Shown piece after piece: positions 22,460-23,582 of a DNA stretch of 64,000 nt. The DNA lies in the NCBI GenBank assembly GCA_030683005.1, contig JAUXMY010000042.1, forward strand, positions 1 to 64,000, written 5' to 3'. Position numbers and translations under genes: made by a program. A model generated the notes under the pieces. That model ran no database searches. It saw only the letters and a program-made list of their open reading frames with translations, and was not told the origin of the DNA. This DNA comes from Caulobacter sp. GTDB lineage: Bacteria; Pseudomonadota; Alphaproteobacteria; Caulobacterales; Caulobacteraceae. The number at the start of each line of letters is the position of its first letter. The first letter of the stretch is position 1.

Positions 22460-23582
22460 TCACCCCTCGACCGCATCCCGGGTCGCGCCGACCCGCTGCG
22501 CCAGGGCCGCGCCCATGAACGCATCCAGGTCGCCGTCCAGAACCCCCGCCGTGTCAGAGGTTTCCACCCCGGTGCGCAGGTCCTTGACCATCTGGTAGGG
22601 CTGCAGGACGTAGCTGCGGATCTGGTGGCCCCAGCCGATGTCGGTCTTCTGGTCTTCCAGCGCCTGGGCGGCGGCCTCGCGCTTCTGCAACTCGACCTCG
22701 TAGAGGCGGGCGCGCAGCATCTTCCAGGCTTCCTCGCGGTTCTGATGCTGGCTGCGGCCGGCCTGGCAGGCGACGGCGATACCGGTCGGAATGTGGGTCA
22801 GGCGCACGGCCGAGTCGGTCTTGTTGATGTGCTGGACGCCGGCGCCGCTGGCCCGGTAGGTAACGGTGCGCACGTCGGCGGGGTTGATCTCGATGTCGAT
22901 GGTGTCGTCGACGACCGGATAGACCCAGGCCGAGGCGAACGAGGTATGGCGCTTGGCGGCCGCATCATAGGGACTGATGCGGACCAGGCGGTGCACGCCG
23001 GCCTCGGTCTTCAGCCAGCCGTAGGCGTTGGGCCCCTTGACCTGCAGCGTGGCCGACTTGATGCCCACCTGCTCGCCGCCGGTCTCCTCGATGATCTCGA
23101 CGGTGTAGCCGTGGGCGGTGGCCCAGCGGGTGTACATGCGCAACAGCATGTTGGCCCAGTCGCAGGACTCGGTGCCCCCGGCCCCGGAGTTGATCTCGAC
23201 ATAGGCGTCGTTGCCATCGGCCTCGCCCGACAGCAGAGCCTCAAGCTCGGCCTTGGCGGCGCGGGCCCTGATCTCCTTCAGCTGGGCGCGGGCGTCCTCA
23301 AGAGAGGCCTCATCGCCCTCCGCGTCGGCCATCTCGGCGAACTCGACGGCATCGGACAGATCGGACTCGATCAATTTTACCGCATTGATGCGATCGGCGA
23401 GCTGCTGGCGCTCGCGCATCAGCGCCTGGGCGTCGGCGGGCCTGTCCCACAGCGTCGGGTCTTCGGAACGGGCGTCCAGTTCGTGGAGACGTCTTAGCGC
23501 GACATCCCAGTCAAAGACGCCTCCTGAGCAGTCCTGCGGACTGCTCGATGTCAGCCTTGGCGGCCTCGACATCCGGTCTCAT
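22460..23582 (-). CDS. prfB: Peptide chain release factor 2 (programmed +1 frameshift; GGQ altered to GVQ)
   Basis: RF2, which releases peptides at UGA and UAA. The real start is ATG 23582 ([20 protein letters not shown]). Codon 24 is an in-frame TGA, and a +1 shift at CTT-TGA continues as [22 protein letters not shown], giving 373 aa. The codon-recognition region ([15 protein letters not shown]), the [18 protein letters not shown] segment and DLRTGVET are intact. Remarkably, the universally conserved catalytic GGQ reads GVQ (residues 248-250, [12 protein letters not shown] context), and the conserved Asp eight residues before the first Gly is Val240. The open frame from 23572 in the other phase is not the natural start. 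No second RF2 gene is visible in the window. Confidence 0.93.
23511..23525 (-). promoter_or_regulatory. prfB autoregulatory frameshift site
   Basis: On the minus strand AGGAGG (23520-23525) is followed, after CGT, by CTT-TGA-C (TGA at 23511-23513). The internal Shine-Dalgarno-like element and its spacing to the slippery CTTTGAC equal the E. coli prfB site. Low RF2 slows termination at UGA and favours the +1 shift, so RF2 controls its own synthesis. Confidence 0.93.

What the first reader, a model, noticed from the sequence alone, without database searches (positions are those of the whole stretch)
22835..22864. RF2 with GVQ in place of the universal GGQ, plus an Asp-to-Val change nearby
The + strand reads CTGGACGCC at 22832-22840, giving Gly-Val-Gln at residues 248-250 on the minus strand. 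In bacterial, archaeal and eukaryotic release factors this tripeptide is GGQ and positions water or the peptidyl bond for hydrolysis; Gly-to-other changes are reported to cripple release. Eight residues before the first Gly, the normally conserved Asp of the R-x-D-x-Y-R segment is Val (residue 240, codon GTT). Both are single-base A/G-to-T differences from the common codons. The rest of the gene, including the frameshift site, is intact. Either an RF2 with reduced activity, with RF1 and other factors compensating, or a sequence error or natural mutant.
Basis: partly seen in the sequence, partly recalled or inferred. Interest (0 to 1): 0.75.

Follow-up and report, generated by a model that had tools for sequence, protein, structure and literature searches.

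The report
RF2 with GVQ: probable local artefact
The recorded gene for the protein that ends translation at UGA carries two changes that should kill it, but the evidence around it points to a small faulty patch in the assembled sequence rather than to a bacterium that lives without this activity.

Summary
The letters are as reported: prfB (22460-23582, minus) reads GVQ at 22832-22840 and Val (GTT) at 22862-22864, where RF2 has GGQ and Asp. It is the only prfB found in this genome. Among 149 distinct other RF2 rows none has Val at either place; the only other GGQ break is a GGE at two overlapping contig ends of one fragmented assembly. The exact GVQ pattern occurs in 1 of 385 class genomes, this one. 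Against seven close relatives, all 4 private nonsynonymous bases of this prfB lie within 60 bases (22836-22895); its other 7 private bases are silent. Over nine frames, this genome's only radical private changes at outgroup-invariant columns are these two. UGA stops are kept (15 of 18 pairs) and RF1 shows no compensating change. RF1, RF3, PrmC, ArfB, SmpB and tmRNA are present. Published work calls GGQ mutants of RF2 inactive. Best reading: a short consensus or assembly artefact; second, a recent real mutation. The gene lies well inside a 300 kb contig, which speaks somewhat against artefact. A living RF2 without GGQ is not excluded but has no supporting sign. Raw reads would settle it.

The parts
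22460..23582 (-). prfB, peptide chain release factor 2, with programmed +1 frameshift; ends in TGA
   Evidence: NCBIfam TIGR00020 493.7 bits, cut-off 370; Pfam PCRF and RF-1
23511..23513 (-). in-frame TGA of the prfB autoregulatory frameshift site (CTT TGA C), intact
   Evidence: Read; position counted by hand
22832..22840 (-). GVQ (GGC GTC CAG) in place of GGQ, residues 248-250
22862..22864 (-). Val codon GTT in place of the invariant Asp, residue 240
22836..22895 (-). 60-base stretch that holds all 4 private nonsynonymous bases of this prfB against seven close relatives (E229D, D240V by two bases, G249V); the E to D change is ordinary, seen in 15 of 152 other rows

Best explanation
The organism most likely has an ordinary RF2 (D and GGQ) and the recorded sequence carries a short faulty patch of about 30 to 60 bases at the most conserved part of the gene, made at sequencing, assembly or consensus. 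The segment coding for the GGQ loop is shared by RF2 genes of related bacteria and partly by RF1, so in mixed or thinly covered data it is a place where an assembler can branch or take a wrong consensus. Shown: the changes are private, local, radical and unaccompanied by decay or compensation. Inferred: the step that produced them, and that the data were mixed or thin there.
For: No Val at either place in 149 distinct other RF2 rows; in the genus 72 rows from 69 other genomes were read (of 74 others; 5 have no sequence over the site) and 71 have GGQ, one GGE, all 71 that cover it Asp. All 4 private nonsynonymous bases in the gene fall within 60 of 1089 bases, the other 7 private bases are silent; three codons dropped at random fall so close in 0.9% of trials. 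In nine frames with 3024 columns invariant in the outgroups this genome has 39 private residues, of which the only two radical ones are these, 9 codons apart; chance of such closeness 0.6%. Invariant columns of PBP1a (70), AmiC (22) and Rne (278) are unbroken. UGA is still used as stop as in the nearest relative, and this prfB itself ends in TGA, where G034 has TAG. Precedents in the same genus: G018 has GGE on two contig ends that share an identical 118-base overlap across the site; G086 has a corrupt-looking prfB 3' end (15 of its 18 private nonsynonymous bases at 1015-1078) and a second fragment of the gene on another contig. GGQ mutants of RF2 are described as inactive (PMC6881298, passages; PMC8131318, passages).
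Against: The gene lies about 22 kb inside a contig of 300,956 bases, not at a contig end; the genome is in only 43 contigs, 98% complete, 2% contaminated; it is not error-rich overall (39 private residues against 41 in G034). Two or three base errors in 27 bases of a good contig are themselves unusual. I have no reads, no coverage and no second assembly of the species, and do not know that it is a metagenome assembly. Radical breaks of otherwise invariant RF2 columns occur in 2 of the 152 others (L060, L108), so such changes are not unique to this record. One of the three clustered changes (E229D) is ordinary. The GGE of G018 could be real too.
Confidence: 0.7

Rival explanations
1. A real but recent mutation: the sequenced cells, or a minority strain that won the consensus, carry a damaged RF2. 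Release at UGA is badly slowed and the lineage is short-lived, or survives for a while on residual activity, rescue and readthrough.
For: The contig is long and the genome otherwise clean. The rest of prfB shows no decay: 7 of 11 private bases silent. UGA stops unchanged. All of this fits a very recent event as well as it fits an error.
Against: RF2 is essential in the bacteria studied (established knowledge), GGQ glycine mutants are inactive, and two independent radical hits 9 codons apart are needed.
Confidence: 0.22
2. A real and stable RF2 that works, or is tolerated, without GGQ: the Gln amide is placed by another backbone geometry, the Asp change compensating; or RF1, ArfB and tmRNA carry UGA termination.
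For: Only the letters themselves. RF3, PrmC, ArfB, SmpB and tmRNA are present and Caulobacter ArfB is important when tmRNA is missing (PMC8012679, passages).
Against: No relative shares it; RF1 has only I174V and A364S as private changes against 11 relatives; UGA is not avoided (15 of 18 UGA stops of G034 kept, 3 gained); the same Gly to Ala makes a standard dead RF2.
Confidence: 0.05
3. The gene is no longer a release factor but an RF2-derived protein with another job, as plant PrfB3.
For: Loss of GGQ in an RF2 relative is known: PrfB3 (PMC5897788, passages).
Against: It is the only prfB, keeps the SPY/SPF-type recognition region and the frameshift site, and UGA stops remain; PrfB3 exists beside a working PrfB1.
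Confidence: 0.03

Closest known systems
Bacterial RF2 (prfB; TIGR00020), E. coli RF2
   Same: Whole length, both Pfam domains, frameshift site, recognition loop region
   Different: Val for the second Gly of GGQ (E. coli G251) and Val for D242
RF2(GAQ), laboratory catalytically inactive mutant (in PDB 5mgp the aligned sequence has Ala at that Gly)
   Same: Same glycine replaced by a residue with a side chain; described as catalytically inactive or deficient (PMC5995542 and PMC6881298, passages)
   Different: Val is bulkier, and there is a second change at Asp; engineered, not natural
Plant plastid PrfB3
   Same: RF2 relative that lost GGQ (PMC5897788, passages)
   Different: PrfB3 also lost SPF and is an extra copy beside PrfB1; here it is the only prfB
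prfA 'pseudogenes' without a functional copy in 34 genomes (PMC12421855, passages)
   Same: An apparently broken essential release factor in single genomes of a species; the authors leave open sequencing error
   Different: There premature stops in RF1; here missense changes in RF2

Membership tests
Bacterial class-I release factor RF2 | Full-length match to the RF2 model above its cut-off | tested here: met
   TIGR00020 493.7 bits against 370; RF1 model 248.9 below its 423.25
Bacterial class-I release factor RF2 | GGQ tripeptide | tested here: not met
   GVQ; 148 of 149 distinct other rows have GGQ, one GGE
Bacterial class-I release factor RF2 | Asp of the R-x-D-x-(Y/F/M)-R segment | tested here: not met
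   Val; Asp in 148 of 148 distinct other rows that cover it
Bacterial class-I release factor RF2 | Stop-codon recognition region (SPF in E. coli) | tested here: met
   Reads [13 protein letters not shown]; no break of invariant columns there. SPF as the name of the motif: PMC8131318, passage
Bacterial class-I release factor RF2 | Peptide release at UGA and UAA | not testable with these tools
   Needs biochemistry
PrfB3-like RF2 derivative | Extra copy beside a working RF2, both SPF and GGQ lost | tested here: not met
   Only one prfB in the genome as held; recognition region kept
Sequence artefact | Absent from the reads or from a second assembly | not testable with these tools

The most novel reading that the evidence does not exclude
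A free-living alphaproteobacterium whose only RF2 works, or is dispensed with, without the GGQ glycine, ending translation at UGA by other means.
Probability: 0.05. Interest if true: 0.85.

Novelty: not a real feature. Interest (0 to 1): 0.15.

Why it matters
If real, it would be a natural break of one of the most conserved tripeptides in biology and would open UGA termination without GGQ to direct test. As judged here its use is as a warning: the GGQ segment of prfB shows such oddities in at least one other assembly of the same genus (G018, GGE at contig ends), so single genomes with broken release factors need read support before they are believed.

Tried and rejected
Second prfB or prfH in the genome: none found; the protein search gave 2 matches, this gene and RF1, and the RF-1 domain gave 3, the third being ArfB. 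Compensation in RF1: only I174V and A364S private against 11 relatives (numbering of the open frame). Loss of UGA stops: not seen (47 frame pairs chosen by a third-position rule, some may not be genes). Phage-borne relatives: none in viral contigs. Papers naming a GVQ release factor: 0 hold all four terms release factor, GGQ, RF2, GVQ; that is one search of open-licence papers only. One search used a wrong family accession (a DapD model) and says nothing here. Lon could be compared with one relative only and was not used. No structure was predicted: a fold model does not judge a point change in an active loop. The E. coli genomes, phages and plasmids collections were not searched.

The E229D change first looked like part of the anomaly, but D stands there in 15 of 152 other rows. 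L146 (five breaks) is a C-terminal oddity of a genome with three prfB pieces, not a GGQ break.

Full report
What is there. The minus strand at 22460-23582 is prfB, with its +1 frameshift site intact and a full-length match to the RF2 model. At 22832-22840 it reads GGC GTC CAG, Gly-Val-Gln, and at 22862-22864 GTT, Val. Against E. coli RF2 these are G251 and D242.

How unusual. In an alignment with 152 other RF2 rows (149 distinct), both columns are invariant: no row but this has anything but Asp and Gly there. The motif is GAGGQ in 141, GSGGQ in 7 and GAGGE in 1 of 149 distinct rows. In the genus, 75 genomes were searched including this one; of the 74 others, 69 were read over the site (72 rows), 5 have no sequence over it. 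71 rows have GGQ and one, from G018, has GGE. A fixed GVQ pattern is in 1 of 385 genomes of the class, this one; that pattern does not see other GGQ breaks. In a leave-one-out count, 14 of the 152 other rows break one or more otherwise invariant columns, two of them radically (L060 Trp to Lys, L108 His to Ile), so a break as such is not unique; a break in the catalytic tripeptide is seen only here and in G018.

Is the assembly bad in general? No. Over nine frames shared with G034 and one to three further relatives, 3024 columns are invariant in the outgroups; this genome has 39 private residues and G034 41. Radical ones are 2 here (the two in question) and 3 in G034. For one of the nine frames only a single outgroup was at hand. 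Invariant columns of PBP1a (70 columns, 76 others), AmiC (22, 56) and Rne (278, 9) are unbroken; one near-invariant PBP1a column differs.

Is prfB decaying? No. Against seven close relatives this prfB has 11 private bases in 1089; 7 are silent and the 4 others (E229D, D240V by two bases, G249V) sit within 60 bases. E229D is ordinary (15 of 152 rows). Random placement puts three codons so close in 0.9% of trials, and two columns of 3024 within nine in 0.6%. Relatives also have clusters: G086 at 1015-1078 and G025 at one codon.

Is the cell adapted to life without RF2? No sign. In 47 frame pairs with G034, 18 end in TGA here; of 18 TGA ends in G034, 15 are TGA here, and 3 other TGA ends here are TAG there, one being prfB itself. 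RF1 has GGQ and no private change beyond I174V and A364S against 11 relatives. PrmC, RF3, SmpB, tmRNA and ArfB are present and score over their cut-offs. ArfB and tmRNA act on ribosomes without a stop codon (established knowledge; PMC8012679 passages).

What it should do. Passages of PMC6881298, PMC5995542 and PMC8131318 describe GGQ mutants of RF1/RF2, GAQ among them, as inactive or deficient in release. Val at the same glycine should be at least as bad (inference). A cell with this as its only RF2 should hardly grow.

Precedents for artefact. In G018 (600 contigs, 85% complete) prfB is split over two contigs whose ends share an identical 118 bases across the GGQ codons, both reading GGE; the size looks like a graph overlap (inference). 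G086 has a locally divergent prfB 3' end and a second fragment. A survey of prfB and prfA (PMC12421855, passages) leaves open sequencing error for 34 genomes with broken prfA.

Verdict. A short local artefact is the most likely cause (0.7), a recent real mutation next (0.22), a working or tolerated GVQ factor 0.05, a repurposed protein 0.03. Against artefact stands that the gene lies well inside a 300,956-base contig of a 43-contig genome and that no read data could be seen.

Noticed in passing
L200 and L201 (G018:C495 and C121 ends): RF2 with GGE in place of GGQ, on two contig ends that share an identical 118-base overlap; no other prfB was found in that genome.
   Followed up: partly
L146, L161, L177 (G028:C71, C46, C41): Three prfB pieces in one genome; the C71 copy has a different C-terminal stretch (five breaks of invariant columns at 308-313), which looks chimeric or from another organism.
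   Followed up: partly
L124 (G086:C199): The 3' end of prfB differs sharply from relatives while a second contig (C186) holds a closer 3' piece.
   Followed up: partly
window 51938-51991, minus strand: Rfam sul1 RNA (RF03058), 66.1 bits against a gathering score of 36.2.
   Followed up: no
window 19213-19289, minus strand: ARAGORN calls a tRNA-Val (tac) here that the Rfam tRNA model did not report at its gathering score.
   Followed up: no
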